Origin: Prevotella sp.
GTDB taxonomy: Bacteria; Bacteroidota; Bacteroidia; Bacteroidales; Bacteroidaceae
Assembly: GCA_017619375.1 (NCBI GenBank)
Contig: JAFZSL010000075.1
Coordinates: 241,189-305,188, forward strand
Direction of reading: 5' to 3'
Length of the DNA stretch: 64,000 nucleotides
Below, piece by piece: positions 37,523 to 56,069 of this stretch; position 1 is the first letter of the stretch, and the number at the start of each line of letters is the position of its first letter. A program made the translations under genes and the position numbers. The notes below the pieces were generated by a model, which did no database searches, was not told the DNA's origin, and saw nothing but the letters and a program-made list of their open reading frames with translations.

Positions 37523-38574
37523 ATGACACACAAATTGTTGCTCGTTTTGGCACTCGGGACGATATGCATGACGAGTGCGGCACAGGGACCGCGCCGCGGC
37601 TTCCAGCGCGAGGCGTTCCAGACAGAGACTCCCATGGCACACGATCCCGTGATGGCTAAGGAAGGTGACACTTATTACATCTATGCCACAGGCATGGGCA
37701 TCCAACAGATGACTTCGAAGGACCGCAAGACATGGACGGTGTTGCCACAACCTGTGATGACGGTCATTCCCGGCTGGACGACCGACTCCGTGCCGGGTTT
37801 CGGAAACCATGTTTGGGCACCTGATGTCATCCAGTGGCATGGCAGTTGGTGGTTGGCTTACAGCTGCTCCACCTTCGGCAAGAATGGTTCGGCCATAGGT
37901 CTGCTGAGCAGTCGCTCGCTGAGAGCCAACATATGGAAAGACGAAGGTTGCATCGTTACCTCGCACGACTGGAAACGAGGCGCCGACGGACAAATGACGG
38001 GTGACAATTGGAATGCCATTGACCCAAATTTCGTCATAGACGATGACGACACCCCGTGGCTCGTCTGGGGGTCGTTTTGGGACGGCATCCAACTGGCTCG
38101 CCTTGACTCCACCATGCATCTCGCCAAGGGGGCAAGCCCCGAACCATTGCACGTCGATACGACCCAAACTACAAGCCCTCGGAGCCCAACCCCACTTCGA
38201 AATTTGCCGGCACGAACGCCATCGAAGCACCGTTCATCTTCAAACACGGCGGATACTACTACCTTTTTGTGTCGTGGGACTACTGCTGTCGTGGTGCCAA
38301 AAGCAACTACCGCGTGGCCGTCGGACGCAGCAAGAGTGTCGAAGGCCCTTACCTCGACCGTGAAGGCAAGGACATGGCCAATGGTGGCGGCGTGCTCTTC
38401 CTGGAGGGCGACAAGAAGGAATGGGAGGCTGCCGGCCATTGTGCAGCCTACAATTTCGACGATGAAGACATCTTCATCTGCCATGGTTACAGTGCCACAC
38501 ATGACGGCGCAGCCATGCTCATCCAGCGGCCTATTGTTTGGACTGCTGATGGTTGGCCTGAACTGAAGCAGTGA
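37523..38574 (+). pseudogene. GH43 arabinan endo-1,5-alpha-L-arabinosidase, frameshifted
   Basis: The first about 203 residues are a clear GH43 arabinanase: signal peptide, MAHDPVMAKEGDTYYIYATG with the catalytic base Asp41, NHVWAPDVIQWHGSWWLAYS, TFGKNGSAIGLLSS and NAIDPNF with Asp167. At the G run 38128-38132 the frame breaks. With one more G the protein continues as KGGKPRTIARRYDPNYKPSE, IEAPFIFKHGGYYYLFVSWD with the acid Glu, and runs to TGA at 38572-38574, for 350 residues. As written, the frame gives about 145 junk residues to 38566. It is a real lesion, a slippage-prone switch or a sequencing error. It probably acts on arabinan side chains when intact. Confidence 0.85.
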
Positions 38575-38681: not shown

Positions 38682-38689
38682 TAATTTTG
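38682..38689 (+). promoter_or_regulatory. -7 promoter box of the FAS1-SusC/D operon
   Basis: TAATTTTG followed by CAC matches TAnnTTTG, 47 bp before the first FAS1 gene. No clear -33 TTTG is seen. It is the only promoter-like box I recognise for the seven-gene unit to 56013. Confidence 0.6.
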
Positions 38690-38735
38690 CACAAATAATC
38701 TAAATAAAACGAATTACCATCCTAACAACTAACCT

Positions 38736-41639
38736 ATGAAGAAATTCTTTATCTGTATCACTCTCGCTTTTGTGGGAATGGTAACCTCGTGCGTCGACAA
38801 GGACGTGGAGGTGGATGCAGACAGCAGGCCGACATGGCTTGGGGGAAGCATATTGGAGGAATTGAGGAATCCGGGAAAGCACGGATTGTTGACGGGGACT
38901 TTTGACACCTATCTCAAACTGATTGACGACCTTGGCTATGCCGAGGTGCTCAACAAGACCGGGTCGAAAACCGTGTTCCCCGCCAACGATGAGGCTTTCG
39001 CAAGGTTCTTCCAAAACAACGAATGGGGCGTGACAGGTTACAATCAACTGTCTGAAGCCCAGAAGAAATTGTTGCTGTATTCCTCCATGCTTGACAACGC
39101 ACTCCTGCTTGAGATGCTACCCAATGTCTATAACGGCACCAACGAGCCGTTGAAAGGCCAGGCCATCCGCCATGAGTCCACCATCAGCACCATCGACTCC
39201 ATCCAATGGATTGCCGGCAAGGAGCAGATGCCCAAGAACAATGTCTATTGGAAACCGTATTACGACAAGGGCATCCATGTCGTCTCCGACAACAGCACGC
39301 AGATGATGCTGCACCTGACAAGGGAGTTCATGACCAACAACGATATCACCGTCGTGGGCGACAACAGCGACTTTGCCATCCTCACCGGAACACCGTATCC
39401 GGAGAACGAAAAAACCGCATATATTTTCAACGACAGGGTGGTTAAGGGAGACCTCACTTGCCAGAATGGATACATCCATCAGATGGAGGATGTCATCGTG
39501 CCTCCAGGCAACATGGCACAGGTGCTGAAAAAACATGACAACACCAAGTATTTCAGCCACATCCTCGACTATTTCGCCGTACCCTATTTCGATGCCGTCA
39601 CCACGCAGCAATACAACGACTGGGCTGTCACCAACGGGAGAAGCACCATCGACTCCATCTACCAGGTGAGATACCTCAGTTCTCGTTCGCAAGGTGGTGA
39701 GGCCTTGGTGCGCGACCCTTACCGTCAGACGCTCTCCACGTCGCAGGTGTTGGGCTATGACCCGGGATGGAACGAATACCACCCGGCGGTGGCCAGGGCC
39801 GGCAACCTCGATATCCGTATCATGGATGTAGGTGCCTTCTTCGTGCCCGACGACAAGGCGGTGAGGAACTATTTCCTCCCAGGAGGAGCTGGGGCGTATC
39901 TCATCGACATCTATGGCAACCTGCCCAACACTGAGGAGAATCTGATGGTGAACCTCGACTCGCTACAGTCGAAAAACCCGCAGGTGCTCACCGCATTCAC
40001 ACGCAACCTGATGAAGGCCTCCTTCTCTGCCACCGTGCCCAGCAAGTTTTCCACCATTCTCAACGACGCCAGCGAGAACATGGGGCTCTCTCTCGACATG
40101 GTCAACAGAAAGGAAAATGGAAAATACGACATCTCATTCGCCAATAACGGAGCCATCTATGTCATCAACGAACTGGTTGCCCCCGACGAGTACCAAGCCG
40201 TAATGGCACCGGCATCCGTCTATCCCGACATGCGTGTGATGAACTGGGCCGTGCAGGATGGTGTTGCCAACGGTGACTACCTCGGCGTGGACTTCAAGTA
40301 CTACCTCCTCGCCATGAGTGCCAACTATGCCTTCTTCATTCCCGAAGATGCCGCCTTCGATTACTATTACCTTGATCCCGCCAGCCTCGCACACCGTGAG
40401 AACAACCAGGCCACCGGGCGCATACAACCCGACCTCCTGCACTTCTACTACGACAAGGCTGCCACCAACCAACCCTTCTTGAAATGTGACCGCTATTATT
40501 TCAACATGCAGACCGGGCAGGTGGAGGGAGAGGCAAGGCAGGCCAATATCTCCGAGGTGAAGACCCAACTCGTGGACATCCTCAACTACCATACCCTGGT
40601 GCTCAACGAAGGCGACCTCATCGGCTCCAACCACTACTATAAGACCAAGCATGGTGGAGAGATATTTGTCGATGGCAATTTCATCGGAGGAAGAGTGATG
40701 GGAGGCTTGCAACTCGAGCAACCCAACTTGTTCCCCGCACCGCAGATCAAGCAGATATATAATGAGAAGAACGGCAATGCCTACCGCCTCAGTCGTGTCG
40801 TGCAACCGCCGACTAAGAGCGTGTATGCCGTACTCAGCGAGAACAGCCAGTTCTCCGAGTTCCTCGAGGCTTGCTCCGGATTCGGCGCCACGCAGATTCT
40901 TGCTTGGGCCGGCATATCCGACGAGGTGAACCCTGCCACGGGCTCCTCTCCCCAGGATGCCTTCACCATTTTCACCCGCAACTACAAGATGGGTGCCACA
41001 AGCATCAGCGAGGCTTGCCTCGACTACAACGTGAAGATGTTCAACACCTACAACTACACCCTCTTCGCACCCGACAACAATGCCATGCAGAGGGCTTATG
41101 CACAAGGGCTACCCAAGTGGGCCGACATACAGGAACTCTTTGAGAAATACGCCGAACTCGACGACAATCACGCCGTCACCGCTCAGGAAGAGTCCGACAA
41201 GGCGCTGGCCTATGTCAAGATCAAGGCACTGCGCGACTTTGTGAGATATCATTTCATGACCAATTCCGTCTATGCCGACAACACCATCGAAGGCGGGCGT
41301 TACACCACGCTCAGCGCCGACGAGATGGGTGTCGCCAAGGAGGTCGTCCTCTCTGGAGGCGGAGGCCAGTTGAATGTCTCCGATGTCACGGGGCACTCCG
41401 TGGCCGTCAGCGCATCCGGGTCCAAGGTGTCCAACAAGATGGCGCGCGACTATTGGTTCAACAACAACAAGATGAGGGCCACGTCCATCGTCACCTCCTC
41501 CTTCTGTGCCGTGCACCAGATCTCAGAACCACTCTATGGGGAAAGTTCTGGTCGTTTCGATGGGGCATGGGCCAACAAGGCTTCCTTCGCCAAGTCGAAG
41601 AAGGTCTATAAGCAACGTAAAGCAAATCACGAACTCTAA
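38736..41639 (+). CDS. Fasciclin (FAS1) repeat lipoprotein, four units (FAS1-A)
   Basis: A 967-residue surface lipoprotein with lipobox VTSC at residues 16-19 and acidic residues after it (VDKDVEVD). Four FAS1-like units are indicated by recurring F-x-P-x-D-x-A motifs: SKTVFPANDEAFARFF (about 77), VGAFFVPDDKAVRNYF (about 366), NYAFFIPEDAAFDYYY (about 530) and NYTLFAPDNNAMQRAY (about 770). Closing segments such as NGYIHQMEDVIVPPG and NGAIYVINELVAP are also present. FAS1 domains mediate adhesion or ligand binding in other proteins. It starts the seven-gene operon, 11 bp before a SusC gene. The ligand is unknown. Confidence 0.88.
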   Translation: MKKFFICITLAFVGMVTSCVDKDVEVDADSRPTWLGGSILEELRNPGKHGLLTGTFDTYLKLIDDLGYAEVLNKTGSKTVFPANDEAFARFFQNNEWGVTGYNQLSEAQKKLLLYSSMLDNALLLEMLPNVYNGTNEPLKGQAIRHESTISTIDSIQWIAGKEQMPKNNVYWKPYYDKGIHVVSDNSTQMMLHLTREFMTNNDITVVGDNSDFAILTGTPYPENEKTAYIFNDRVVKGDLTCQNGYIHQMEDVIVPPGNMAQVLKKHDNTKYFSHILDYFAVPYFDAVTTQQYNDWAVTNGRSTIDSIYQVRYLSSRSQGGEALVRDPYRQTLSTSQVLGYDPGWNEYHPAVARAGNLDIRIMDVGAFFVPDDKAVRNYFLPGGAGAYLIDIYGNLPNTEENLMVNLDSLQSKNPQVLTAFTRNLMKASFSATVPSKFSTILNDASENMGLSLDMVNRKENGKYDISFANNGAIYVINELVAPDEYQAVMAPASVYPDMRVMNWAVQDGVANGDYLGVDFKYYLLAMSANYAFFIPEDAAFDYYYLDPASLAHRENNQATGRIQPDLLHFYYDKAATNQPFLKCDRYYFNMQTGQVEGEARQANISEVKTQLVDILNYHTLVLNEGDLIGSNHYYKTKHGGEIFVDGNFIGGRVMGGLQLEQPNLFPAPQIKQIYNEKNGNAYRLSRVVQPPTKSVYAVLSENSQFSEFLEACSGFGATQILAWAGISDEVNPATGSSPQDAFTIFTRNYKMGATSISEACLDYNVKMFNTYNYTLFAPDNNAMQRAYAQGLPKWADIQELFEKYAELDDNHAVTAQEESDKALAYVKIKALRDFVRYHFMTNSVYADNTIEGGRYTTLSADEMGVAKEVVLSGGGGQLNVSDVTGHSVAVSASGSKVSNKMARDYWFNNNKMRATSIVTSSFCAVHQISEPLYGESSGRFDGAWANKASFAKSKKVYKQRKANHEL

Positions 41640-41650
41640 AGGACAATGCC

Positions 41651-44600
41651 ATGAGTATCAAGAAAATCATATCCATAGCACTGTTGTGTGTCGCCTGCCT
41701 GACGGTTTCGGCGCAGGAAATTCTTGTCACGGGTACGGTAGAGGACGCTGAAGGCCCTGTCGTGATGGGCAACGTCGTCGAACGCGACGCCAACAACCGT
41801 ATCGTCTCCGCCACCCAGACCGACTTCAATGGCAACTTCAGCATGAAGGTGAAGAGTAAGAAAAACAAACTTGTCTTCTCCTACGTGGGCGACAAGACGC
41901 AGACGGTCGCCATCGGTGACAAAACCACTTTCAACATCGTGCTGGAGGAAAACAACACTCTCGTCGATGTCGTGGTGATAGGCCGAAGCGGCAGTTCGGG
42001 AGGACTACGCATCCCCAAGAAGGAGATGACCGTCTCGCAGCAGGTGATGAACATGACCGACGTGGAGGGACTCGCCTTCACCTCCGTCGATGAGGCTCTC
42101 CAAGGCGAGATCGCAGGTCTCGACGTCGTCAGCAACTCTGGCAACCTCGGTGCGGGTACGCAGATGCGTCTTCGTGGTGTCACCACCCTCAGCGCAAATG
42201 CCAACCCGCTGATTGTCGTAGACGACAAGATTTTTGATAATCCCGATGAAGACTTCGACTACGCCAATGCCGACGAGGAGCAATATTCCTCGCTCCTTTC
42301 CGTCAACGTGGAGGACATCGCCGAAATCACCGTGCTCAAGGATGCCGCCGCAACCGCCGTTTGGGGTTCGAGAGGTTCCAATGGTGTCATCATGATCACC
42401 ACCAAGCGTGGCATGAGGGGAAAACCAAGGTTGAATTTCTCTTACAAATTCACTGGAACTTGGCAGCCCGACGGTTACACGTTGCTCAATGGTGACGACT
42501 ACACCATGCTGATGAAGGAGGAGTTCTACAACCCCACACAGAGGTCCGACCGCACCACTTCCATTGCAGAGTTGAATTATGACCGTACATGGAGCGAATA
42601 TGAGAATTGGAACAACAACACCGACTGGGTGAAGGCCGTCAAGCAGTTCGGTGCCATGCACGAATACAATATCAACCTCTCTGGTGGCGGCGAGAAGGCC
42701 ACGTTCCGCGTCTCTGCCGGTTATAAGAACCAGACTGGTTCCATCATCAGGCAGAAATTCCAGCAATACACCACGCGTCTCGCCCTCGACTACTACGTCA
42801 GCGACCGCATCAGGTTCATCACCAACTTCGCCCTCACCTACACGGACAATTACAAGAACTATGAGGGCAACATCAACGGTGTGTCCAATCCAAGCCTTCT
42901 CTCCATCGCACAGACGCAGGCGCCCAATATGAGCATCTACAGGCAGAACGCCGACGGTTCGGACACCGACGAGTTCTACCTGCCCAATCCCTACCAGTCG
43001 GGAAAGACACCCTACGACGGACCATACCTCTCTTATGACCTCAGGAACATACAGGAGTTGGGCAACCCCGTCGCCATCGCCAATCTCGCTTGGATCAAGG
43101 ATAAGACCTACAGGCTCACGCCCGACTTCACCCTCAAGTACGACATTCTTGGCACATCGGCCAACAAGAGCAGGCTGACGTTCACCGGACGCGTAGATTT
43201 CGACATCTTCGCAGAGAGCAAGCCCACCTATCATCCGGCATCGCTCGCCACCAACCAGTGGACCAGCAACGATTACAACCTGGCCACCAACTACGAGTAC
43301 AACAGCACCAAGATAGGGGCAAGGACAGAACTCCTCTTCACCCCTTGTTTTCGCAACAAGGACTGGTCGGCTTCCATGCTCGTCAGGTATGAGATGAACA
43401 TGGCGAAGAACAATAACCAGACGGTCATCATGTACCATTTGCCCAATGGTGTCACCTCCTCCACCGTGGAAGCTTTCAGCGGGACGCCGTCGAGCAGCAA
43501 CGGGCGTTCCAACTCCCAGAAGGTGCTCTACAACTCACACCTCTCTTACAAGGACGGACGCTACAGCCTCGGTTTCTCTCTCAGCGCCGACGGAAACTCC
43601 AAGTTCGGCCCCAAGAACAAATGGGCGTACTTCCCCGGTGTCTCCGCACGCTACAACATCATCGACGAACCCTTTATGGCGTGGTCGAGGAAGCAGGTTT
43701 CCATGCTCGGACTCAGGGCCTCATGGGGCATCACCGGCAATTCACCCGACAGGGACTACCTCTTTTATAACACCTACAACACTTCCGCGGGCAACTATGG
43801 AAAGGGAAGTGACAGAGAACCCTATGCCACCCTTGACGGACTGAAACTCGACAACCTCAAATGGGAGAAGACCACTTCCTACAACATCGGATTCAACCTC
43901 GGACTCTTCCAGGACAAGATCGAGGTGGATTTCGACTACTACCACAAGAACACCACCGACCTCCTCAGGGGCATCACCATCCCTTCCATGACCGGATACT
44001 CGTCGCTCAGTTACGCCAACGTGGGTCGGATGACCAATGACGGATGGGAACTCAACCTCACCGCCAAGAAATTCATCAAGATAGGAAAGTTCTCCGCCGA
44101 CTTCAGTGTCAACGTGGCACAGAACTCCAACATCCTCGAGGAGATGGACGAGAGCGTGCTGCAGTCCATCAACGGTACCACCTGGGACCCGACGCTCAGG
44201 GGTACGACGGTCAACAACGGCAACACGCAGGCCAACGGATATCCCATCCGCGTACAGATAGGCAACTCCCTCGGCTCCATCTATGGATACCATTGCAAGG
44301 GCGTCTACCAGTACTCCTACGACTATCTCGAAAACTACCGCAGGGAGAACAACCTCACCACTGCCGAGTATGAGGCGTGGATCAACGACTTCCTCGCCAG
44401 CGGCAAGACGGCTCCCGTGGCCGTGGGGGCCGACGGAAAGGTCCTTATGACCAATGCCGGAAGACCGCAGCGCATGAAATACGCCTACGGCACTACGTCG
44501 GAATACGACTTCCAAGGCGGCGACCTCATCTACGAGGACATCAACCACGACGGACAAATCAACGCGCTCGACGTGATGTACCTCGGAAACTCCCTACCCA

Positions 44601-45085
44601 AGGTGAACGGTGGCTTCAACCTCACGTTGAGGTATGGCAACTGGACCCTCAAGGGACGTTTCAACTATCGTTTCGGCAACAAGGTCATCAACCTCGCTCG
44701 CATGAGCCTGGAAAACATGTACAGCACCAACAACCAAAGCGCCACCGTCAACTACCGCTGGCGCAAGGACGGAGATGTCACTCCCATCCCAAGGGCGCTC
44801 TACAACTCAGGATGGAACTTCCAGAATTCCGACCGCTATGTGGAGGATGGAAGCTTCGTCAGATTCCAGAACCTGCAGATTTCCTACAACTTCCCCAAGA
44901 GACTCATCAAGAGTTGGGGCATCAGCACCTTGCAGGCTTATGCTTCCATGAACAACCTTTACGTGTGGACCAAGTACAGCGGCACCGACCCCGAGATTTC
45001 GGCCACGGGCTTCTATCCCGCCAGGGACCAGGCCAAGACACCGCGTTCGAAACAGTTCACCGTCACGCTCAACGTGGGATTTTGA
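41651..45085 (+). CDS. SusC/RagA family TonB-linked outer membrane transporter (pair 2)
   Basis: This 1144-residue SusC protein has a signal peptide ending in VSAQ. Its CarboxypepD_reg-like domain covers about 22-105 (GTVEDAEGPVVMGNVVERDA, SATQTDFNGNFSMKVKS). The plug domain (VVVIGRSGSSGG, ITVLKDAAATAVWGSRGSNG) and barrel follow, ending in FTVTLNVGF. The plug loop after LIVVDDKIFDNPDEDFDYAN is longer and more acidic than usual. It lies 11 bp after FAS1-A and 34 bp before its SusD. No enzymes surround it, so the imported ligand cannot be inferred from context. Confidence 0.95.
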   Translation: MSIKKIISIALLCVACLTVSAQEILVTGTVEDAEGPVVMGNVVERDANNRIVSATQTDFNGNFSMKVKSKKNKLVFSYVGDKTQTVAIGDKTTFNIVLEENNTLVDVVVIGRSGSSGGLRIPKKEMTVSQQVMNMTDVEGLAFTSVDEALQGEIAGLDVVSNSGNLGAGTQMRLRGVTTLSANANPLIVVDDKIFDNPDEDFDYANADEEQYSSLLSVNVEDIAEITVLKDAAATAVWGSRGSNGVIMITTKRGMRGKPRLNFSYKFTGTWQPDGYTLLNGDDYTMLMKEEFYNPTQRSDRTTSIAELNYDRTWSEYENWNNNTDWVKAVKQFGAMHEYNINLSGGGEKATFRVSAGYKNQTGSIIRQKFQQYTTRLALDYYVSDRIRFITNFALTYTDNYKNYEGNINGVSNPSLLSIAQTQAPNMSIYRQNADGSDTDEFYLPNPYQSGKTPYDGPYLSYDLRNIQELGNPVAIANLAWIKDKTYRLTPDFTLKYDILGTSANKSRLTFTGRVDFDIFAESKPTYHPASLATNQWTSNDYNLATNYEYNSTKIGARTELLFTPCFRNKDWSASMLVRYEMNMAKNNNQTVIMYHLPNGVTSSTVEAFSGTPSSSNGRSNSQKVLYNSHLSYKDGRYSLGFSLSADGNSKFGPKNKWAYFPGVSARYNIIDEPFMAWSRKQVSMLGLRASWGITGNSPDRDYLFYNTYNTSAGNYGKGSDREPYATLDGLKLDNLKWEKTTSYNIGFNLGLFQDKIEVDFDYYHKNTTDLLRGITIPSMTGYSSLSYANVGRMTNDGWELNLTAKKFIKIGKFSADFSVNVAQNSNILEEMDESVLQSINGTTWDPTLRGTTVNNGNTQANGYPIRVQIGNSLGSIYGYHCKGVYQYSYDYLENYRRENNLTTAEYEAWINDFLASGKTAPVAVGADGKVLMTNAGRPQRMKYAYGTTSEYDFQGGDLIYEDINHDGQINALDVMYLGNSLPKVNGGFNLTLRYGNWTLKGRFNYRFGNKVINLARMSLENMYSTNNQSATVNYRWRKDGDVTPIPRALYNSGWNFQNSDRYVEDGSFVRFQNLQISYNFPKRLIKSWGISTLQAYASMNNLYVWTKYSGTDPEISATGFYPARDQAKTPRSKQFTVTLNVGF

Positions 45086-45119
45086 TTAAGGTAACGTCAA
45101 ACTTTGAAACCATAAGGAT

Positions 45120-46886
45120 ATGAAAAGATATATTTCAATGATTCTTGCATGCATGACACTCGTGTCGTGCGTGGACACCATCATCCTGCCTGACGACAAG
45201 ACCGTGGACGAGGATTTCTGGAAGTCGAAAGAGGATGTGGCATTGATGGTCAACTCTGCCTATGCAAGTCTGGCCAGCGAGGCGTTGCTCACCAGACTTG
45301 TCATCTGGGGCGACTTCCGTTCCGACGAGATGGTGCGTTCCTCGGCCCTTACAGGTGCCATTCCCGACGCTTTGGACGAAATCTCCACCGTCAACATGCA
45401 GACCACCAACACCTTTGCTTCGTGGAACTCGGTCTATTCTGTCATCAACTATTGCAATATCGTGCTCGAAAGGGCTGAGGCGGTCATGCAGCTCGACCCC
45501 AACTACACGCAGTCGGACTATGAGGCCGACCGTTGCCAGATGCTCGCTTTACGCTCGCTGTGCTACTTCTATCTCGTGCGTAACTTCCGCGATGTACCGT
45601 ATGTCACGACGGCCTTCATGAATAGCAGCCAGGACATGCAGATACCGCAGTCGTCGCCAGAATACGTCATCGGACAAATCATTCAGACCCTCGAGGAGGT
45701 GGCCACAAATGCCAACATGCTCCGCTCCGATGGCATGCCGACCAGTGAATGGAGAAGGGTGGGGTGGTTCCGCCTCGACGCCGTCAACGCGCTCCTCGCC
45801 GACGTCTATCTCTGGAGGGCCTCTGTCTTGCACAGCACGAGCGACTACCAGAAATGCATCGAATACTGCGACAAGGTCATCGCCTCCAAGCGCAGCCAGC
45901 ATGTCAGGGGGCGTAACGAGGTGCAAGAGAAGGAATTCCCTCTCGCCGACGGCAACTCCTACTACTCCGACATCTTCGTCACGCAGAACGCCGAGGAGAG
46001 CATATTCGAGATACAGTCCACTGGCAACCTCGGCATCTGCAAGTACCTCTACAAGTACAATAACAACAACAGCACCGAGGGGTTCCTCAGGGCATCGAAC
46101 ATCTTCGGAAACGGAACACTCTTCCCCAATGGAGACCTCTCCACCAACAATTCCAGCAGTTCCGACCTCAGGTTCTATTCTGCTTGCTACACTTCGAGCG
46201 ATGACTACTACCACATCAAGAAGATGGTCTCGCAACTCAACGTGGCAACCAAGGCTGGTTCCGCACGCTCTAACGACAGGACCTACACGGCGTTCGATCA
46301 AAACTACATCGTCTACCGCCTCACCGATGTCATGTTGATGAGGGCGGAGGCCATGGTGCAACTTGTCAACGACCTTCCCGATGGAGCGAGTGACAGTGAG
46401 AAGGCGGCCAACACCACGCTACTGCAAGGCGCGTTCCACCTCGTGCAGGTGGTCAACACACGCTCGCTCTACACCGACAACCTCACCGACTCCATGAAAT
46501 GGAACACCTATCGTTCCTACACCAAGGACCAGATGGAGCGTCTCATCCTCGAGGAGAGGTTGCGTGAACTTTGCTTCGAGGGGAAACGGTGGTATGACTT
46601 GCTTCGTTACAACTACAGGCACGTCATGGGCGTGAACTACGCGCAGACCTTCGGCGAGCAGATGCAAGGCATGGGGACCAATGAAATCAACCTTGTGGAC
46701 AATTACGAGGAGATGCTCAACCTCGCCACTAGGAGCAGGGGAGCCGACGCACCGGCCATCAGGGCCAAGATGCGCAACGAGGCATACCTCTACATGCCCA
46801 TCCCCAATGCCGACATCATCGTCTGCCCCTTGTTGGTGCAGAACCCGGCCTACAAGACTTCAGGAGATTTTGAAAAATCATATTAA
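45120..46886 (+). CDS. SusD/RagB family lipoprotein (pair 2)
   Basis: A 588-residue SusD-like surface lipoprotein with lipobox LVSC at 14-17, followed by VDTIILPDD. It contains FWKSKEDVALMVNSAYASL near residue 37, the TPR-like RCQMLALRSLCYFYLVRNF and the C-terminal LRELCFEGKRWYDLLRYNYR. It is the lid partner of the SusC encoded just upstream. The next gene begins 17 bp downstream with a strong AAGGAGG-like site, which is unusual for Bacteroidota. Confidence 0.95.
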   Translation: MKRYISMILACMTLVSCVDTIILPDDKTVDEDFWKSKEDVALMVNSAYASLASEALLTRLVIWGDFRSDEMVRSSALTGAIPDALDEISTVNMQTTNTFASWNSVYSVINYCNIVLERAEAVMQLDPNYTQSDYEADRCQMLALRSLCYFYLVRNFRDVPYVTTAFMNSSQDMQIPQSSPEYVIGQIIQTLEEVATNANMLRSDGMPTSEWRRVGWFRLDAVNALLADVYLWRASVLHSTSDYQKCIEYCDKVIASKRSQHVRGRNEVQEKEFPLADGNSYYSDIFVTQNAEESIFEIQSTGNLGICKYLYKYNNNNSTEGFLRASNIFGNGTLFPNGDLSTNNSSSSDLRFYSACYTSSDDYYHIKKMVSQLNVATKAGSARSNDRTYTAFDQNYIVYRLTDVMLMRAEAMVQLVNDLPDGASDSEKAANTTLLQGAFHLVQVVNTRSLYTDNLTDSMKWNTYRSYTKDQMERLILEERLRELCFEGKRWYDLLRYNYRHVMGVNYAQTFGEQMQGMGTNEINLVDNYEEMLNLATRSRGADAPAIRAKMRNEAYLYMPIPNADIIVCPLLVQNPAYKTSGDFEKSY

Positions 46887-46903
46887 AGGAAGGAGGAACT
46901 GAT

Positions 46904-49006: not shown

Positions 49007-49026
49007 ACACAATAAACCAAGTAATT

Positions 49027-50754
49027 ATGAGAAGATACCATTATATAGCCTGCGCGATGATGGCGGCGATGACGCTCGCCGTCACCTCGTGCTCGGAGTT
49101 CGATGACTACAACGAGGCTCCGACCGATGCAATGGCCTCGGGCAACATGACGCTTTGGCAGAACATCACGCAAAACCCGCAACTCTCCGACTTCGCTTCG
49201 TTGGTGAAAAGGACCAAGTTCGACACCGAATTGGACAACACGAGGGCCTACACCGTATGGGCGCCGCTCAACGGCACCTTCAACATGGGAGCCTTCCTGC
49301 AGTTGGACGATTCCACGCTACTGGCACAGTTTGTCAAGAGCCATGTGGCCCAGTACAACCATGTGGCCAGTGGGAGCATCGACGAGCGCATTCACACGCT
49401 CAACAAGAAGTCGTTCTCCTTCACCGGTAACGGTGACTACACCTATGGCGGGATACACGTCAATGCCCCCAACCGACCTGGTTCCAACGGTGTCATGCAC
49501 CTCTTGGATGGGGCGGTTCAGTTCTTCCCCAATCTCTATGAGTACCTCTCCATGGGACAGGGCATCGACTCGCTAAGAAACTATTTCCTCGGCTACGAAC
49601 TCACCACCCTCGACCTCCAGAACAGTGTGAAAGGCTCTGTCGTTGGAGGCGTGCAGACCTACATCGACTCCGTGCTTATCACGACCAACTCCCTTACAAG
49701 GCAACTCAATGCCAGCCTCTCCAACGAGGACAGCACCTATACCTTCATCATGCCCACCAACAAGGCATACCAGCAGATGTATGACAAGGTGAAGCAGAAC
49801 TACAACTTCATTGCCACCACCAAGGTGCAGGATGTGGAGCAGTTCGCCAGTGCCAGCGCCAACAATTCGAAGAACATTACCGTGGATGCGGAATACCTCT
49901 CCGACTCACTCACCAGAAGGCATATCGTGAACAACCTCATTTTCAGCAATAACGACGGGTACAACCGCTGGGTGATAGGCAAGGGGCTCTTCTCCGACAC
50001 GCTCCGTAGCACCACGAAGCACAAACTCTCCAACCCCAACGACATCCTGGCCCAGACCATGGAAAAGGTGGAGATGAGCAATGGCTTCGCTCACATCGTG
50101 GACAGTCTTGCCTTCTATCCTTGGGAAACCTATGCACCGGAGATAGAGGTGTCACCCTCAAGGTATATCGCCAACAAGTTCAACTGCTCTTCGCAGAGCA
50201 TCACTTTCACCGACTCGGAGGGAAGGGTGTTCGGACCGGAGATAAAGGAATTCAGGTACACTTGGATATACCCCACCAGCGACTACTCCAAACCTGATGT
50301 GTTTATCTCGCTGCCCAATGTGAATTCCACCACATACAATTTCTATTGCGTGTTCCTGCCGAGTGCCTATGTAGCCAACGACTCCCTGCCCAACATCCTG
50401 AACTTCCAACTCAGTTATTGTGCGGCAAACGGCAACTTGGCCACATACAACTTCAGCAAGGCATACGCCGACAGCCTCCTCACCGGAGGGACGCTGCCAA
50501 GGGTGCCTTCCTCCGTGAGCATGACGACGGCCTTCGTCAACGATCCGTTGAAGACCGACACCGTCTTCATCGGCAGGTTCCAGTTCCCCGTGGCTTACAA
50601 CGGACTGGGCGACGACTATCGGCCGAACATTCACATCAGCAATCCCATCAGCGTGTTCAACAAGACCCAGATGGCCACTTATACGCGTGACATGCGCATC
50701 GCCGCCATCATCTTGAGGCCGGTCGAGATGGATGAATTTGAAAAAGAACAATGA
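49027..50754 (+). CDS. Fasciclin (FAS1) domain lipoprotein (FAS1-C)
   Basis: A 575-residue lipoprotein with lipobox VTSC at about 19-22 and SEFDDYNE after it. FAS1 unit 1 (about 38-180) has RAYTVWAPLNGTFNMG and a closing GVMHLLDGAVQFFP. Unit 2 (about 185-365) has TYTFIMPTNKAYQQMY and SNGFAHIVDSLAFYP. The last about 200 residues are a separate beta domain (DVFISLPNVNSTTYNFYCVF, ILRPVEMDEFEKE). Its stop overlaps the next SusC start by 4 bp, so the two are translationally coupled, which links FAS1-C directly to SusC pair 3. Confidence 0.88.
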   Translation: MRRYHYIACAMMAAMTLAVTSCSEFDDYNEAPTDAMASGNMTLWQNITQNPQLSDFASLVKRTKFDTELDNTRAYTVWAPLNGTFNMGAFLQLDDSTLLAQFVKSHVAQYNHVASGSIDERIHTLNKKSFSFTGNGDYTYGGIHVNAPNRPGSNGVMHLLDGAVQFFPNLYEYLSMGQGIDSLRNYFLGYELTTLDLQNSVKGSVVGGVQTYIDSVLITTNSLTRQLNASLSNEDSTYTFIMPTNKAYQQMYDKVKQNYNFIATTKVQDVEQFASASANNSKNITVDAEYLSDSLTRRHIVNNLIFSNNDGYNRWVIGKGLFSDTLRSTTKHKLSNPNDILAQTMEKVEMSNGFAHIVDSLAFYPWETYAPEIEVSPSRYIANKFNCSSQSITFTDSEGRVFGPEIKEFRYTWIYPTSDYSKPDVFISLPNVNSTTYNFYCVFLPSAYVANDSLPNILNFQLSYCAANGNLATYNFSKAYADSLLTGGTLPRVPSSVSMTTAFVNDPLKTDTVFIGRFQFPVAYNGLGDDYRPNIHISNPISVFNKTQMATYTRDMRIAAIILRPVEMDEFEKEQ

Positions 50755-53700
50755 GTATGAAGCGTACACGATATCATTTCTTGCAGAGGATGGGTCGGAG
50801 ACTCCTCTTCTGCACCGTGGCGGCCGCCATTGGCGCATCGCCGGCCATGGCACAGAACGAAGACGAAGAGACCGTGGAGGTGGAGACTACCATCAAGCAG
50901 CCACAACGCAAGGTGGTGGCAGACAAATTCGCCACCGTCAACCTCACCGGCGTCGTGACGGAGATGGGCAGCAACCAGCCGTTGCCCGGCGTACAACTTC
51001 AGGCTATGGGATTCGTGCGCTACACCGCCATGACGGAGGAGAACGGAGCGTTCACCATCAAGGTGCCGGAATTCGCCACCGCGCTTTATGTCAAGGCACC
51101 GGGCTATATGCCCCAACAGGTGGCCATTGTCCCTGGCGACCCCTCACAGGTCATCGCCATCAAGATGATGAAGGATAAGTTCCAACCCATGTATGGCACG
51201 GGAACCGACTACACGGCGAAGGCCGAGGCCGGCATCGACCGTTTCGGCCTCTCCGTGGACAATGAGATGACCGGCAGGTTGGGTGGTGACGTGCGCATGA
51301 TGATGCGCTCGGCTGCACTCGACGGCGGCGCATCCATGTTCATCAGGGGACTCAACAGCATCACCAGCGACGCACAGCCACTTATCGTTCTCGACGGTGT
51401 GGAACTCGACATGCAGCGTGACAGGTATTCACTCCACGACGGGCAGTTCAACAACATCCTCGCCAACATCGCACCCGACGACATCGAGAAGGTCACCGTG
51501 CTGAAAAACGCCACTGCACTTTATGGCGCAAGGGGCGGCAACGGTGTCATTCTCATAGATACGAAGAGAGGACGTTCCATGGCCACACGCATCGACGCCA
51601 ACATCTCCGCCGGCGTGACGCTCCTGCCCAAACTGCCTAAACTGATGAACGCCCAGCAGTACCGTACCTACGCTACAGAACTGCTTGGCACCATCGACGG
51701 AATTATGGAGAGGACCATCGACTTCCGATTCCTCAATGACGACCCCAACGGCTACTACTACCACATGTATCACAACGACACCGATTGGAGCGACCATGTC
51801 TACAAGAATGCCTTGACGCAGAACTACAGCATCAACGTGCAGGGTGGCGACAACATCGGCATGTACAATCTTTCACTCGGATATGTGGACGCCAAGTATT
51901 CAGCCAAGGAGAACTCCTTCAACCGCATGAACGTCAGGTTCAACACCGACATCAGCATCCTCTGGAACCTCAAGACCAAGTTTGACATCTCCATTTCGAG
52001 AACCAACAATTTCCTCTTCGACAACGGGATGCCGGCCGACTTCACCAAGGGAACGGTGGTGTCGCCCATCGCGTTGGCCATGATCAAGTCGCCGCTCGTG
52101 GCACCCTATCAGTACAACGAGCACATCAACAACGGGAAGGGCGGTTTCTCCTCGCTTCTCTCTGGTGCCGATGACTTATTCTACCAGTTGGAGCGAAACC
52201 ACGCCTACGACCTGGCCAACCCCGTCTCCATCATTGAGAACGCCCAAGGCGACAACAAGAACAAGGCGGAGAACACCTATTTCAATGTCCGTGTCGAACC
52301 GGTCTATCAGATTGCGAAAGACTTCAACCTCTCCGCAATGTTTAGTTACACCCTCGACCGTAATGCGCAACGCTATTTCCGACCTTATGGCGACGTGCCT
52401 TCGTTCAACATCGCCGGCACTGGAAGGGTCTATGCCAAGGCGCAGTCGATGTTTGCCAAGGAAAACAACATCGTGGGAAAACTCCAACTCGATTGGTCGC
52501 ATCAGTATGGCAAGCACTATGTGGCAGCATTCGCTGGAGCAAGATACAACTCTTTCACCTATGACTCCAACGACATCGCTGTGGAGGCCAATGGTGCCAC
52601 CAGCGACAAGAATCCGTCGCTCGGATGGTCGGGATACCGCACCATCACCGGAGCCAACGACGAGTGGAAACAGATACAGGCCTATGCCAACGTCGACTAC
52701 AACTTCATGAATCGCTATTTCGCCACACTCTCGGTGCTCGGTGAAGCCAACAGCCGATTTGGCGAGAATGCTGACGGGCTGAGCATGTTCGGCGAGAAAT
52801 GGGCGTTGTTCCCCAGCCTCCAACTGGGATGGGTGATGACCAACGAGAAATGGTTCCCAAAAAACATCGGGGTGAACTACCTCCGACTCAATGCCGGCTT
52901 CGACATCAGTGGCAATGACGGCATCAGCAACTATGCGGCGCGTACCAGCTACACCACCGTGCGCTACAACTACGACGCCATCGGAACACAACTCACCAAT
53001 GTCGGAAACGACAAGATTCAGTGGGAGAGCACCAAGAAACTCAACATCGGACTCCAGGCCTTCCTGTTGAACAATAGGGTGGGGGTGAGGTTCGACTACT
53101 TCATCCATAAGACAGACAACCTCCTTACACTCAAGTCTTTCTCCAATCCCATCGCTGGCATCAACCGCTACTGGAGCAACGAGGGCGAGTTGGAAAACAC
53201 TGGCTTCGAGGGAACGCTCACCGTCAAACCCGTCGTGAGCAAAGACTGGAACGTGGAGGTGGGACTCTCCGCAGGACACTACACCAACGAGGTGACGAAA
53301 TTGCCTGATGGGGCATACACCTCCTCCATCTACGGAGAGGATAACATCCTCACATCGAAGGGAAATCCCGTGGCCGTGTTCTATGGGTACAAGACCAACG
53401 GGGTGTTCGCCACCGATGCTGAGGCACTGGCGGCAGGAAAGGGAGGCTACCTCTACATGGAGGATCAGGCTGGACAGCGTCATGAGTTCAAGGCCGGCGA
53501 CGTGAGGTTTGTCGACATCAACAACGACGGTGTCGTCAACGAGAGCGACAAGACCGTCATCGGCGACCCCAATCCCGACTTCTATGGCAATATCTTCGGC
53601 ACCGTCAGTTGGAAGAACTTCACTTTGAGCCTCGTCTTCAACTACAGCCTGGGCAACGACGTGTTCAACTACCAGCGCATGGTGCTCAACTCTGGTTCCA

Positions 53701-54068
53701 ACTTCTACAACCAACAGGTGGCTGAAGTGGGAAGATGGAGGTATGAAGGACAAGTCACCGACATCCCAAAGGCCACCTTCGCCGACCCCATGGGCAACAA
53801 CAGGTTCAGTGACAGATGGATAGAGGATGGCTCATACCTCAGACTCAAGTCGCTACACCTCTCGTACCGCGTACCCGTGCCAGGGACTTGGACATGGCTG
53901 CAGGGACTGTCGGTTTGGGCGGAGGCGCAGAACCTCCTCACCTTCACCAAATATCTCGGGAGCGATCCGGAATTCTCCGTCGGCAGCGGCGTCCTCTTCC
54001 AAGGCATCGACAGCGGAAACCTCGCTCATAGCCGGGCTTTCATGATGGGGTTGAAAATCAACCTGTAA
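50751..54068 (+). CDS. SusC/RagA family TonB-linked outer membrane transporter (pair 3)
   Basis: A 1105-residue SusC-like protein with signal peptide ending in AMAQ. A charged, Glu/Val/Lys-rich stretch of about 40 residues precedes the carboxypeptidase-like domain (LTGVVTEMGSNQPLPGVQLQ), which is unusual. The plug region has FIRGLNSITSDAQPLIVLDG and VTVLKNATALYGARGGNG; the barrel ends in AFMMGLKINL. It starts inside the FAS1-C stop (ATGA overlap) and is followed 22 bp later by its SusD. It is clearly different in sequence from pair 2, so this is not a recent tandem copy. Confidence 0.95.
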   Translation: MSMKRTRYHFLQRMGRRLLFCTVAAAIGASPAMAQNEDEETVEVETTIKQPQRKVVADKFATVNLTGVVTEMGSNQPLPGVQLQAMGFVRYTAMTEENGAFTIKVPEFATALYVKAPGYMPQQVAIVPGDPSQVIAIKMMKDKFQPMYGTGTDYTAKAEAGIDRFGLSVDNEMTGRLGGDVRMMMRSAALDGGASMFIRGLNSITSDAQPLIVLDGVELDMQRDRYSLHDGQFNNILANIAPDDIEKVTVLKNATALYGARGGNGVILIDTKRGRSMATRIDANISAGVTLLPKLPKLMNAQQYRTYATELLGTIDGIMERTIDFRFLNDDPNGYYYHMYHNDTDWSDHVYKNALTQNYSINVQGGDNIGMYNLSLGYVDAKYSAKENSFNRMNVRFNTDISILWNLKTKFDISISRTNNFLFDNGMPADFTKGTVVSPIALAMIKSPLVAPYQYNEHINNGKGGFSSLLSGADDLFYQLERNHAYDLANPVSIIENAQGDNKNKAENTYFNVRVEPVYQIAKDFNLSAMFSYTLDRNAQRYFRPYGDVPSFNIAGTGRVYAKAQSMFAKENNIVGKLQLDWSHQYGKHYVAAFAGARYNSFTYDSNDIAVEANGATSDKNPSLGWSGYRTITGANDEWKQIQAYANVDYNFMNRYFATLSVLGEANSRFGENADGLSMFGEKWALFPSLQLGWVMTNEKWFPKNIGVNYLRLNAGFDISGNDGISNYAARTSYTTVRYNYDAIGTQLTNVGNDKIQWESTKKLNIGLQAFLLNNRVGVRFDYFIHKTDNLLTLKSFSNPIAGINRYWSNEGELENTGFEGTLTVKPVVSKDWNVEVGLSAGHYTNEVTKLPDGAYTSSIYGEDNILTSKGNPVAVFYGYKTNGVFATDAEALAAGKGGYLYMEDQAGQRHEFKAGDVRFVDINNDGVVNESDKTVIGDPNPDFYGNIFGTVSWKNFTLSLVFNYSLGNDVFNYQRMVLNSGSNFYNQQVAEVGRWRYEGQVTDIPKATFADPMGNNRFSDRWIEDGSYLRLKSLHLSYRVPVPGTWTWLQGLSVWAEAQNLLTFTKYLGSDPEFSVGSGVLFQGIDSGNLAHSRAFMMGLKINL

Positions 54069-54090
54069 CATAACACTAAAAGGAAAAATC

Positions 54091-56013
54091 ATGGAAACGA
54101 TGAAACAAATTAAAATAGTTGTTTGCAGCATGGTTGTCGCTTGTGCTTGCTTCTCGTGCTCCGACATGTTGGAAACGGAGAGCACCAGGCAGAACATTGA
54201 GCCGGAAATCCTCGACAAGACCGACTCCGTCTTTTATGGCTATGGTATCTTGCAGGCCATGCAGCAGTTGGCCGACCAGTATGTCTTCCAAGGTGAGATG
54301 AGGGGCGACTTGGTGAAAACCACCGTCTATACGGACAACAACCTCAGACAATTGGCCAACTTCTCCGCCAACACCACCAACAGGTATGACTCAGCATACG
54401 TCTATTACAGGGTCATCAACAACTGCAACTACTATCTCGCCAAACGCAACACCGAACTCTACACTGGCTCAACTAACGTGGTGATGAACGAATATGCGGC
54501 GGTGGCGGCCATCAGGGCATGGGCCTACTTGCAGTTGGGGAGAAACTATGAGCGAGTGCCGTTCTTCACCGAACCGCTCACCAAAATCACGCAGATTGAT
54601 GAGAACAAGTATCCCGAACTCGACCTCCAAGGCATCGTCGAACAGTTGGCTCCTGAATTGGAGAAATACAAGAACTACAAAGTGCCCAACTATGGACTGA
54701 CTTCAGGACGCAGCGTCGGCTCCCCCAACTGGGAGAGTGCCGCAAAGACCTTCTTGCCCAGCCTTTGCTTCATACCCGTTGCTGTAGTTCTGGGAGACAT
54801 GTATCTGGAGACTGGCAACTACGATGCGGCGGCAAAGACGTATGTCACTTATCTCACACAAGTGGCGGAGACTACCAGTAGTCCCTTCCTCGCACCCATG
54901 GTGTCGAAGAGCATCAGTTCGGGAAGATTCGGGGAAACGGGTGATGACGACCTGCCCGACCCCAGCCTTATCGGGGTACAGATTACCACCTCGCCATCAT
55001 GGGCCGGCATCTTCGCACGCAATTCCACATCAGACATTATCTCCTACATCCCCATGGCGGTCAACAGGCAGAACGGATGCGTCACCAACGTACCTCTCGC
55101 CTTTGGCTTCAACTACTACGCCACATCTGAGGAACTGAGCGCCAATGGAAACACCAACCCATATGTCGATGAGATTCAAATCCAGGTGTCCGACCAACTC
55201 AACTTCCTCTCTGACTCCACGGAATATTACTATTACGCCCGTGGTGGCATCAACGACTTCGACAGCATCAATGCGGCCAACTGTGGCGACATGAGGCTCA
55301 GGAGCATCATCCATCAGACCCTCGTCGATGACTCCACGCACCAGTGGATAGACAAGTACAAGTATGCCAACATTGTCCTCTACCGTACCAGCACCGTCCT
55401 GCTGCATTTGGCTGAGGCCTTCAACCGTCTGGGCATGCCTGATGCCGCTTTCGCCATCCTGAAAGACGGATTGAGCGAAAACCTCATAGAGAGGAACAAT
55501 CTCGGTGAGTATTACGTCAACTACCTCTCCGAAGAAACCAGGAATATGTTGCAGACCACATACCCGTTGCTCTCCCAGGAGAACCTCTACCTCTTCCCTA
55601 AGGCGTCTGCTTACGGCATCCACACCCATGGGGCGGGGAAAGCCGCCAGCGACTACGCAGGAGCGTCGGGACAGGGTGGCACCAGTTACCAGACAGGCAA
55701 GTCACCTTACAAACTCGACCGCATCTTGGGAAAGAAGATGAAGGAGATTGCTGAAACCTTCGGCGTGAATGTCGGTGCCACCAAACAGGATACCATCAAC
55801 GCCGTGGAGGACCTCCTCTGTGACGAGTATGCCATGGAACTCGCCTTCGAGGGCAACCGTTACTACGACCTTATGAGGCTCGCCCGACACAAGAACGAGG
55901 CTGGGCTCTATGATGCCAATTTCGGCAGCAGGTGGTTCGCCCGCAAACTGGCCCACAAGAACCCCGTGGTCAATCTCGAGGACCGGAAAAACTGGTATCT
56001 GCCTTTCAAGTGA
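54091..56013 (+). CDS. SusD/RagB family lipoprotein (pair 3)
   Basis: A 640-residue SusD-like lipoprotein with a Cys-rich signal end, ACACFSC, followed by SDMLETEST. SusD features include YVYYRVINNCNYYLAKRNTE, AVAAIRAWAYLQLGRNYERV with the TPR-like helices, and the C-terminal CDEYAMELAFEGNRYYDLMR. It is the last gene of the seven-gene unit; a 17-bp stem-loop starts 4 bp after the stop. M4 at 54100 is an alternative start. Confidence 0.95.
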   Translation: METMKQIKIVVCSMVVACACFSCSDMLETESTRQNIEPEILDKTDSVFYGYGILQAMQQLADQYVFQGEMRGDLVKTTVYTDNNLRQLANFSANTTNRYDSAYVYYRVINNCNYYLAKRNTELYTGSTNVVMNEYAAVAAIRAWAYLQLGRNYERVPFFTEPLTKITQIDENKYPELDLQGIVEQLAPELEKYKNYKVPNYGLTSGRSVGSPNWESAAKTFLPSLCFIPVAVVLGDMYLETGNYDAAAKTYVTYLTQVAETTSSPFLAPMVSKSISSGRFGETGDDDLPDPSLIGVQITTSPSWAGIFARNSTSDIISYIPMAVNRQNGCVTNVPLAFGFNYYATSEELSANGNTNPYVDEIQIQVSDQLNFLSDSTEYYYYARGGINDFDSINAANCGDMRLRSIIHQTLVDDSTHQWIDKYKYANIVLYRTSTVLLHLAEAFNRLGMPDAAFAILKDGLSENLIERNNLGEYYVNYLSEETRNMLQTTYPLLSQENLYLFPKASAYGIHTHGAGKAASDYAGASGQGGTSYQTGKSPYKLDRILGKKMKEIAETFGVNVGATKQDTINAVEDLLCDEYAMELAFEGNRYYDLMRLARHKNEAGLYDANFGSRWFARKLAHKNPVVNLEDRKNWYLPFK

Positions 56014-56017
56014 ACTT

Positions 56018-56069
56018 ATAGGAAGCCTTAGGAAAAACAAGTATCCTTGGTATTCCTAAGGCTTCCTAT
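56018..56069 (+). terminator. Stem-loop at the end of the FAS1-SusC/D operon
   Basis: A 17-bp inverted repeat (56018-56034 with 56053-56069) with an 18-base loop lies directly after the last SusD stop. It is followed by a C/T-rich stretch with CTCCTAAG and TTCCTATA, reminiscent of 21086-21150. Confidence 0.75.

What the first reader, a model, noticed from the sequence alone, without database searches (positions are those of the whole stretch)
38682..56069. Seven-gene operon combining three FAS1 lipoproteins with two distinct SusC/SusD pairs and no enzyme
Gene order is FAS1-A, SusC, SusD, FAS1-B, FAS1-C, SusC, SusD. Gaps are 11, 34, 17, 20, -4 and 22 bp, with one promoter-like box in front and a 17-bp stem-loop behind. 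The two SusC proteins differ clearly, so this is not a simple tandem duplication. No glycosidase, lyase, peptidase or regulator is included. Polysaccharide loci normally carry enzymes. The FAS1 proteins are lipoproteins with acidic post-Cys residues, and FAS1-C is translationally coupled to SusC-3. They may act as extra capture or lid subunits, with two receptors handling different parts of one ligand, perhaps a glycoprotein or host-derived polymer. The ligand and assembly are inference.
Basis: partly seen in the sequence, partly recalled or inferred. Interest (0 to 1): 0.78.

Follow-up and report, generated by a model that had tools for sequence, protein, structure and literature searches.

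The report
Conserved seven-gene outer-membrane uptake module
A block of seven genes, encoding two nutrient importers and three surface proteins with "fasciclin" domains, recurs in the same order across a bacterial phylum and probably captures branched plant cell-wall sugars such as pectin, yet I found no published description of it.

Summary
In detail: seven co-directional genes (FAS1-A, SusC, SusD, FAS1-B, FAS1-C, SusC, SusD), with gaps of 11, 34, 17, 20, -4 and 22 bp, one promoter-like box in front, no such box inside, and a strong hairpin behind. It is far more than one odd operon. The same genome holds five diverged copies. I gathered 67 complete cassettes from several families of Bacteroidota, all in the same order. 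The seven protein trees are largely, not fully, congruent, so the block is mostly inherited as a unit. A cassette marker is in 131 of 201 genomes of the family but in only 7 of 296 drawn from the class. Enzymes are absent from the core but adjacent in at least 11 of 36 cassettes examined. In the window's own clade rhamnogalacturonan lyase lies near 5 of 8, against 3 of 55 other cassettes. I read it as a seven-part SusCD uptake module for branched plant cell-wall polysaccharides, with RG-I pectin likeliest for this copy, not a host glycoprotein. One physical complex is inference; structure prediction could not be run. Searches of an open-access library found no description. A new variant of the SusCD/utilisome kind.

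The parts
38682..38689 (+). promoter-like TAnnTTTG box, 54 bp before the first ATG
   Evidence: one such box between 38567 and 38740, none on the + strand inside the 17.3-kb operon; 16 of 36 cassettes have one within 150 bp of FAS1-A against 2.5 expected from mononucleotide shuffles; no -33 TTG part seen by my check
38736..41639 (+). FAS1-A lipoprotein, 967 aa, four FAS1 repeats
   Evidence: PF02469 57.8 bits; repeats at about 55-272, 367-485, 523-692 and 694-933 with a self-built iterated model, the first found as two pieces; lipobox pattern in 61 of 65 cassettes
41651..45085 (+). SusC-1 TonB-dependent transporter, 1144 aa
   Evidence: TIGR04056 675 bits, over cut-off
45120..46886 (+). SusD-1 lipoprotein, 588 aa
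   Evidence: PF07980 88.9 bits, over cut-off
46904..49006 (+). FAS1-B lipoprotein, 700 aa, two FAS1 repeats plus a C-terminal domain
   Evidence: PF02469 68 bits; repeats 41-198 and 200-443
48335..49003 (+). C-terminal domain of FAS1-B, perhaps a carbohydrate-binding module
   Evidence: profile of 27 homologues matches a xanthan-binding module and a xanthan lyase weakly: 7ehg E 6.7e-4 (best domain i-E 0.005), 6f2p E 0.0056 (best domain i-E 3.6); five of 27 members match DUF5108, best E 1.6e-5, the window's own domain does not
49027..50754 (+). FAS1-C lipoprotein, 575 aa, two FAS1 repeats plus a C-terminal region with no match
   Evidence: PF02469 63.9 bits; repeats 40-182 and 226-369; C-terminal profile has no PDB match better than E 1.6
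50751..54068 (+). SusC-2 TonB-dependent transporter, 1105 aa, overlapping FAS1-C by 4 bp
   Evidence: TIGR04056 564 bits, over cut-off; the -4 overlap recurs in 8 of 36 cassettes, this one included
54091..56013 (+). SusD-2 lipoprotein, 640 aa
   Evidence: PF07980 42.5 bits, over cut-off
56018..56069 (+). 17-bp stem-loop, likely transcription terminator
   Evidence: fold -31.8 kcal/mol, z = -7.7 against dinucleotide shuffles
26987..29977 (+). 996-aa secreted protein of unknown family, clade-specific neighbour of the cassette
   Evidence: a homologue lies near the cassette (219 to 3,682 bp; here 8.8 kb, with other genes between) in all 8 members of the window's clade; no Pfam match
24415..26862 (+). 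rhamnogalacturonan lyase PL11 of the upstream locus (context, not part of the operon)
   Evidence: PF21348 537 bits

Best explanation
The seven genes encode one outer-membrane uptake module. Two TonB-dependent SusC transporters, each with a SusD lid, are made in fixed company with three surface lipoproteins built of eight FAS1 repeats in all (4+2+2). FAS1-B and FAS1-C add C-terminal regions, that of FAS1-B perhaps carbohydrate-binding. The FAS1 lipoproteins take the place that enzymes and surface glycan-binding proteins hold in known utilisomes: they catch a long branched polymer and pass fragments, cut by separately encoded enzymes, to two transporters that differ in what they accept. The ligand differs by clade: decorated xylan for some copies, and most likely rhamnogalacturonan-I pectin for the window copy. 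Shown: gene content, fixed order, largely joint inheritance, lipoprotein-like N-termini, clade-linked enzyme neighbours. Inferred: one physical complex, division of labour, ligand.
For: 65 of 65 complete cassettes gathered have the same order and orientation, although the test asked only for seven hits on one strand within 22 kb; two more; none are identical and two pairs are near-identical. In the 29 named-locus cassettes each protein scores best with its own position's model, at least 1.69 times the next position's, even in Flavobacteriaceae. Gaps are tight: median 18 bp, 204 of 216 at most 60 bp. Distances between the seven protein trees correlate at 0.88-0.97 over 65 cassettes and 0.83-0.96 within the 49 Bacteroidaceae-type ones. 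Own copies C16, C52 and C7 each have one same nearest relative in another genome for all seven proteins; C53 has it for six, C33 for four. Lipobox pattern in 61-65 of 65 for each of the five lipoproteins. Neighbours include PL11, GH2, GH43, GH51, GH10, GH30, GH67, GH98, GH115. Window clade: PL11 within 25 kb in 5 of 8, against 3 of 55 other FAS1-A places in the same 16 genomes (my tally; Fisher p = 3.9e-4).
Against: No structure, interaction, expression or binding datum. Over all 63 FAS1-A places PL11 is near only 8, against 6.8 expected if spread evenly, so pectin is not a general ligand; the clade contrast was drawn after seeing the data, and the 3 'others' were not placed in the tree. Two of the window clade have GH115 beside them, a family also named for xylan (PMC8002723). 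Several cassettes have no enzyme beside them (G402 lies near genes that read as leucine biosynthesis). No control of enzyme density around ordinary SusCD pairs was made. The carbohydrate-binding match of FAS1-B is weak, and FAS1-C has none. My lipobox pattern also fires in 28 and 11 of 65 SusC-1 and SusC-2, which are not lipoproteins. Trees are not fully congruent: FAS1-B conflicts with SusC-2 at 9 supported splits, and all seven proteins share a nearest neighbour in only 33 of 65.
Confidence: 0.55

Rival explanations
1. The FAS1 proteins are adhesins, not transporter subunits. They hold the cell to plant particles, matrix or other cells, while two independent SusCD pairs, co-expressed with them, import what is released there.
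For: The best FAS1 relatives of solved structure are matrix or adhesion proteins (periostin, TGFBIp; also fasciclin I). FAS1-B-like genes also occur alone: 5 of 42 fetched regions.
Against: An adhesin need not be locked to two SusCD pairs in one order over a phylum; FAS1-C is placed directly before SusC-2 in 65 of 65 and their ORFs overlap in 13 of 36, starts taken at the first start codon.
Confidence: 0.22
2. The ligand is a protein, peptide or host glycoprotein, as in RagAB-like importers; the FAS1 proteins bind it.
For: Enzyme-free SusCD loci with extra lipoproteins exist: PMC7618045 mentions a B. [quoted passage not shown] SusC-2 matches RagA in the PDB by sequence, though less well than chains named SusC homolog.
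Against: Adjacent enzymes found by Pfam are carbohydrate-active and mostly plant-wall types; no peptidase family was the call for any of the 24 of 37 adjacent genes scanned. One esterase after G033_C21 has a secondary Peptidase_S9 match. Named complete cassettes include many ruminant MAGs but also Leeuwenhoekiella and Flavobacterium alvei.
Confidence: 0.12
3. The FAS1 lipoproteins are assembly or spacing factors that help build or cluster two SusCD complexes and never touch the ligand.
For: A spacer role has been proposed for another PUL lipoprotein domain, DUF1735 (title and start of abstract of PMC11216935 in the listing). FAS1-C's C-terminal region has no known relative.
Against: The FAS1-B C-terminal domain shows weak likeness to a carbohydrate-binding module; FAS1 sequences differ more between the own copies than the SusCs do, as expected of ligand-facing parts.
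Confidence: 0.08

Closest known systems
Levan and dextran utilisomes of Bacteroides thetaiotaomicron (PMC7618045; passages read)
   Same: SusC and SusD with extra surface lipoproteins from one locus, shown there to be a stable complex
   Different: One SusCD pair with a glycoside hydrolase and a glycan-binding protein; here two different pairs, three FAS1 lipoproteins and no enzyme
Rhamnogalacturonan-I locus of B. thetaiotaomicron with two SusCD pairs, BT4164/65 and BT4168/69 (PMC8002723; passages read)
   Same: Two SusCD pairs for one pectic ligand, and a surface glycan-binding protein (BT4167)
   Different: Works with many enzymes; no FAS1 protein is mentioned in the passages read
XusABCD of Prevotella bryantii (PMC8002723) and the tandem SusCD xylan locus of Segatella copri (PMC11784079; passages read)
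   Same: Two SusC/SusD pairs together for a plant polysaccharide
   Different: No FAS1 lipoproteins in the passages read; a GH10 xylanase works with or lies in the locus
SusCDE complex of Flavobacterium johnsoniae (PMC12611786; passages read)
   Same: SusCD with an extra surface lipoprotein, function unknown
   Different: One pair; the words fasciclin and FAS1 are absent from the text
FAS1 proteins such as periostin and TGFBIp
   Same: Several FAS1 repeats in a row
   Different: Animal proteins (extracellular matrix, recalled); here bacterial surface lipoproteins in a transporter operon

Membership tests
SusC/RagA TonB-dependent transporters | Score over the curated TIGR04056 cut-off (368 bits) | tested here: met
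   675 and 564 bits
SusD/RagB lipoproteins | Score over the curated PF07980 cut-off and a lipobox | tested here: met
   88.9 and 42.5 bits against 23.1; lipobox pattern in 64 and 65 of 65, a loose pattern that also fires in some SusCs. SusD-2 is weak.
Fasciclin (FAS1) domain proteins | Score over the curated PF02469 cut-off (22 bits) | tested here: met
   57.8, 68 and 63.9 bits
Polysaccharide utilization locus | SusCD genes with carbohydrate-active enzymes in the same transcription unit | tested here: not met
   No enzyme among the seven genes; enzymes adjoin in other copies
Polysaccharide utilization locus | Functional link to neighbouring enzyme genes | tested here: inconclusive
   RG-I locus upstream in the window; PL11 within 25 kb in 5 of 8 of the clade; no expression data
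Utilisome | SusCD and extra surface lipoproteins encoded together | tested here: met
   fixed order in 65 cassettes and lipobox pattern in 61-65 of 65 for each of the five lipoproteins
Utilisome | Stable stoichiometric complex in the outer membrane | not testable with these tools
   Needs purification and cryo-EM; structure prediction was always busy
Utilisome | Contains a surface glycoside hydrolase | tested here: not met
   No hydrolase among the seven
Xus-like tandem SusCD | C-D-C-D order without FAS1 proteins between | tested here: not met
   Two FAS1 genes lie between the pairs in 65 of 65 cassettes

The most novel reading that the evidence does not exclude
An ancient seven-protein outer-membrane machine of the Bacteroidota: two different TonB-dependent SusCD transporters yoked by FAS1 lipoproteins as a new class of surface glycan-binding subunit, kept as one unit of fixed composition and re-used with different plant-wall enzymes for different branched polysaccharides.
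Probability: 0.45. Interest if true: 0.78.

Novelty: new variant of a known kind. Interest (0 to 1): 0.62.

Why it matters
Utilisomes are known with one SusCD pair and an enzyme. A block with two pairs, three FAS1 lipoproteins and no enzyme, found in several orders of the phylum, would add a second architecture, give FAS1 domains a role in nutrient uptake, and put a name to operons that occur in one to seven copies per genome in 131 of 201 genomes of this family. It makes testable how one cell handles branched fibre with two transporters, and it gives a marker for fibre use that enzyme-centred annotation may overlook.

Tried and rejected
Simple tandem duplication of one SusCD pair: rejected; SusC-1 and SusC-2 share about 25% and each groups with its own position across orders. 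Oddity of one genome: rejected. Pectin as the general ligand of all copies: not supported; PL11 lies near 8 of 63 FAS1-A places, against 6.8 expected if spread evenly. A recurrent eighth gene common to all cassettes: none found by clustering 379 proteins within 12 kb of 36 cassettes; the largest clusters occur in 6 of 36. A glycan-binding domain in FAS1-C: no match. Phage origin: no match at high DNA identity in the phage collection (megablast only). Structure prediction for FAS1-B and, once, FAS1-A: sixteen attempts met a full queue, so no fold search was run. Not done: a control of enzyme density around ordinary SusCD pairs; the SusC list was obtained for it but not used.

Literature: nine searches, seven of them with fasciclin or FAS1 terms, in an open-access library showed no description of FAS1 with SusC/SusD as an operon. 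Lists were capped: one search showed 15 of 15,974 papers, 20 of 64 and 15 of 1,184. PMC10199937 and PMC7661554 hold the words in separate places (passages). Subscription papers are not covered.
Full report
What is there. Seven ORFs run head to tail on the + strand from 38736 to 56013, with gaps of 11, 34, 17, 20, -4 and 22 bp. Three match the Fasciclin domain over its cut-off, two are SusC by TIGR04056 and two are SusD by PF07980. A TAnnTTTG box (the Bacteroidota promoter element, recalled) lies 54 bp before the first ATG and none occurs on the + strand inside the operon; my check found no -33 TTG part before it. Over 36 cassettes 16 have such a box within 150 bp of FAS1-A, against 2.5 expected from mononucleotide shuffles. 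A 17-bp hairpin ends the unit (z = -7.7). Repeat searches with a self-built, iterated model give FAS1-A four FAS1 domains (its first found as two pieces), FAS1-B two and FAS1-C two in the window; over 67 cassettes FAS1-B has two in 65 and FAS1-C two in 59.

It is repeated in the genome. A Fasciclin search of the own genome gives 12 hits in five places. Reading those places shows the same seven genes in the same order at contigs C7, C33, C52, C53 and C16, the window. Copies share 33-64% in SusC-1 and 28-60% in SusC-2, while SusC-1 and SusC-2 share about 25%.

It is conserved across the phylum. Complete ones include Leeuwenhoekiella nanhaiensis (Flavobacteriaceae), Flavobacterium alvei, Puteibacter caeruleilacunae (Prolixibacteraceae) and a Chitinophagaceae MAG. 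Together 65 cassettes, all in one order, and two more later. None of the 67 is a duplicate; two pairs are near-identical. The position models were built from the five own copies, which match them by construction. In the 29 named cassettes each protein scores at least 1.69 times higher with its own position's model than with the next. With FAS1-C as marker (E at most 1e-40), 131 of 201 genomes of the family have a match (83 of 132 of the best quality), but only 7 of 296 genomes drawn from the class, the own one and one of its genus included. In a phylum draw of 392 genomes, 72 match the FAS1-B profile at E 1e-20, most over the FAS1 part only; seven outside the family have a full-length match, and the eight cassettes of those seven genomes are all complete. 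So it is common in the family and scattered beyond it.

It is largely inherited as a block. Patristic distances of the seven protein trees correlate at 0.88-0.97 over 65 cassettes and at 0.83-0.96 within the 49 Bacteroidaceae-type ones. SusC-1 and SusC-2 trees have no conflict between well-supported splits. Against this, FAS1-B conflicts with SusC-1 at 6 to 9 and with SusC-2 at 9 supported splits, and all seven share one nearest neighbour in only 33 of 65 cassettes. Own copies C16, C52 and C7 each have one nearest relative, in another genome, for all seven; C53 for six and C33 for four.

Neighbours. In the window the operon follows a locus with GH2, PL11, a 996-aa secreted protein, SusC, SusD, a 651-aa protein and a frameshifted GH43. 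I listed 37 same-strand genes within 420 bp of the other 35 cassettes and scanned 24. Carbohydrate enzymes directly adjacent: GH51 (G033_C1, G108_C8), GH98 and GH10 (G070), GH30 (G137), PL11 (G199_C78), GH43 (G050_C23, G141), GH67 (G087), GH2 (G233) and an esterase (own C53). Counting the broken GH43 of the window, at least 11 of 36 cassettes have a carbohydrate enzyme beside them. Others have none: G402 sits among genes that read as leucine biosynthesis, and G183, G155 and G141 lie after a ribosomal-protein cluster (by reading), with a GH43-type protein between (scanned in G141, clustered with it in the other two). So the core carries no enzyme, but it is often set beside plant-wall enzymes. 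I did not measure how often ordinary SusCD pairs are.

The window copy. Eight cassettes form one clade with support 1.0 in both the SusC-1 and SusC-2 trees. PL11 lies within 25 kb of FAS1-A in 5 of these 8, and in 3 of the other 55 FAS1-A places of the same 16 genomes (my tally; Fisher p = 3.9e-4). This contrast was made after looking, contig ends limit it, and the three others were not placed in the tree. Over all 63 places PL11 is near 8, against 6.8 expected if spread evenly. Homologues of the window's 996-aa protein lie near the cassette in all 8, within 3.7 kb in seven and 8.8 kb away in the window. GH115 adjoins in two, and an esterase with a GDSL domain follows the cassette of G033_C21. 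I read RG-I pectin as the likeliest ligand of this copy; the clade around own C53 (GH98 and an esterase there, GH30 in G137) looks like a xylan type.

FAS1 proteins. A simple lipobox pattern was found in 61, 63 and 64 of 65 for FAS1-A, -B and -C, with two or more acidic residues in the next six in 46, 44 and 50; it also fires in 28 and 11 of 65 SusC-1 and SusC-2, so it is loose, and some cysteines are misassigned. The C-terminal domain of FAS1-B matches a xanthan-binding module and a xanthan lyase weakly (E 6.7e-4 and 0.0056, best domain i-E 0.005 and 3.6); that of FAS1-C matches nothing.

Mechanism. In the levan utilisome SusCD carries an enzyme and a glycan-binding lipoprotein on the lip of SusC as a stable complex (PMC7618045, passages). 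I propose that here the FAS1 lipoproteins take those places on two different SusCs, with cutting left to enzymes encoded elsewhere. Two SusCD pairs for one ligand have precedent in RG-I and xylan uptake (passages of PMC8002723, and PMC11784079). The complex, the division of labour and the ligand are inferred. Structure prediction was tried sixteen times and always met a full queue.

Verdict. A new variant of the SusCD/utilisome kind, not found described in the searches listed (some lists capped).

Noticed in passing
window 37523-38574: The GH43 gene just before the operon is split over two reading frames (37523-38566 makes GH43-like sequence only in its first part; the rest reads in another frame ending at 38574). 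Either a real pseudogene or a sequencing slip.
   Followed up: partly
regions G187_C1, G021_C9, G050_C1, G133_C6, G199_C103; L053, L064, L069, L073 among the named loci: FAS1-B-like lipoproteins occur without the SusC/SusD genes of the cassette nearby; role unknown.
   Followed up: partly
L114 3514-16112 (Niastella sp.): A six-gene variant, FAS1-SusC-SusD-FAS1-SusC-SusD, which may resemble an ancestor made of two FAS1-SusC-SusD triplets.
   Followed up: no
window 26987-29977: 996-aa secreted protein without Pfam match whose homologues accompany all 8 cassettes of this clade; its C-terminal end resembles a sorting tail (by reading).
   Followed up: partly
L011 489-2780: A 763-aa gene without Pfam match stands 5 bp before FAS1-A in own copy C33, and an HTCS-type sensor follows that cassette (L016 1543-5490).
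   Followed up: no
region G120_C20 (loci L205, L206): A rearranged copy with two FAS1-B genes followed by FAS1-C, SusC-2 and SusD-2, without FAS1-A, SusC-1 or SusD-1 in the fetched 38 kb.
   Followed up: no
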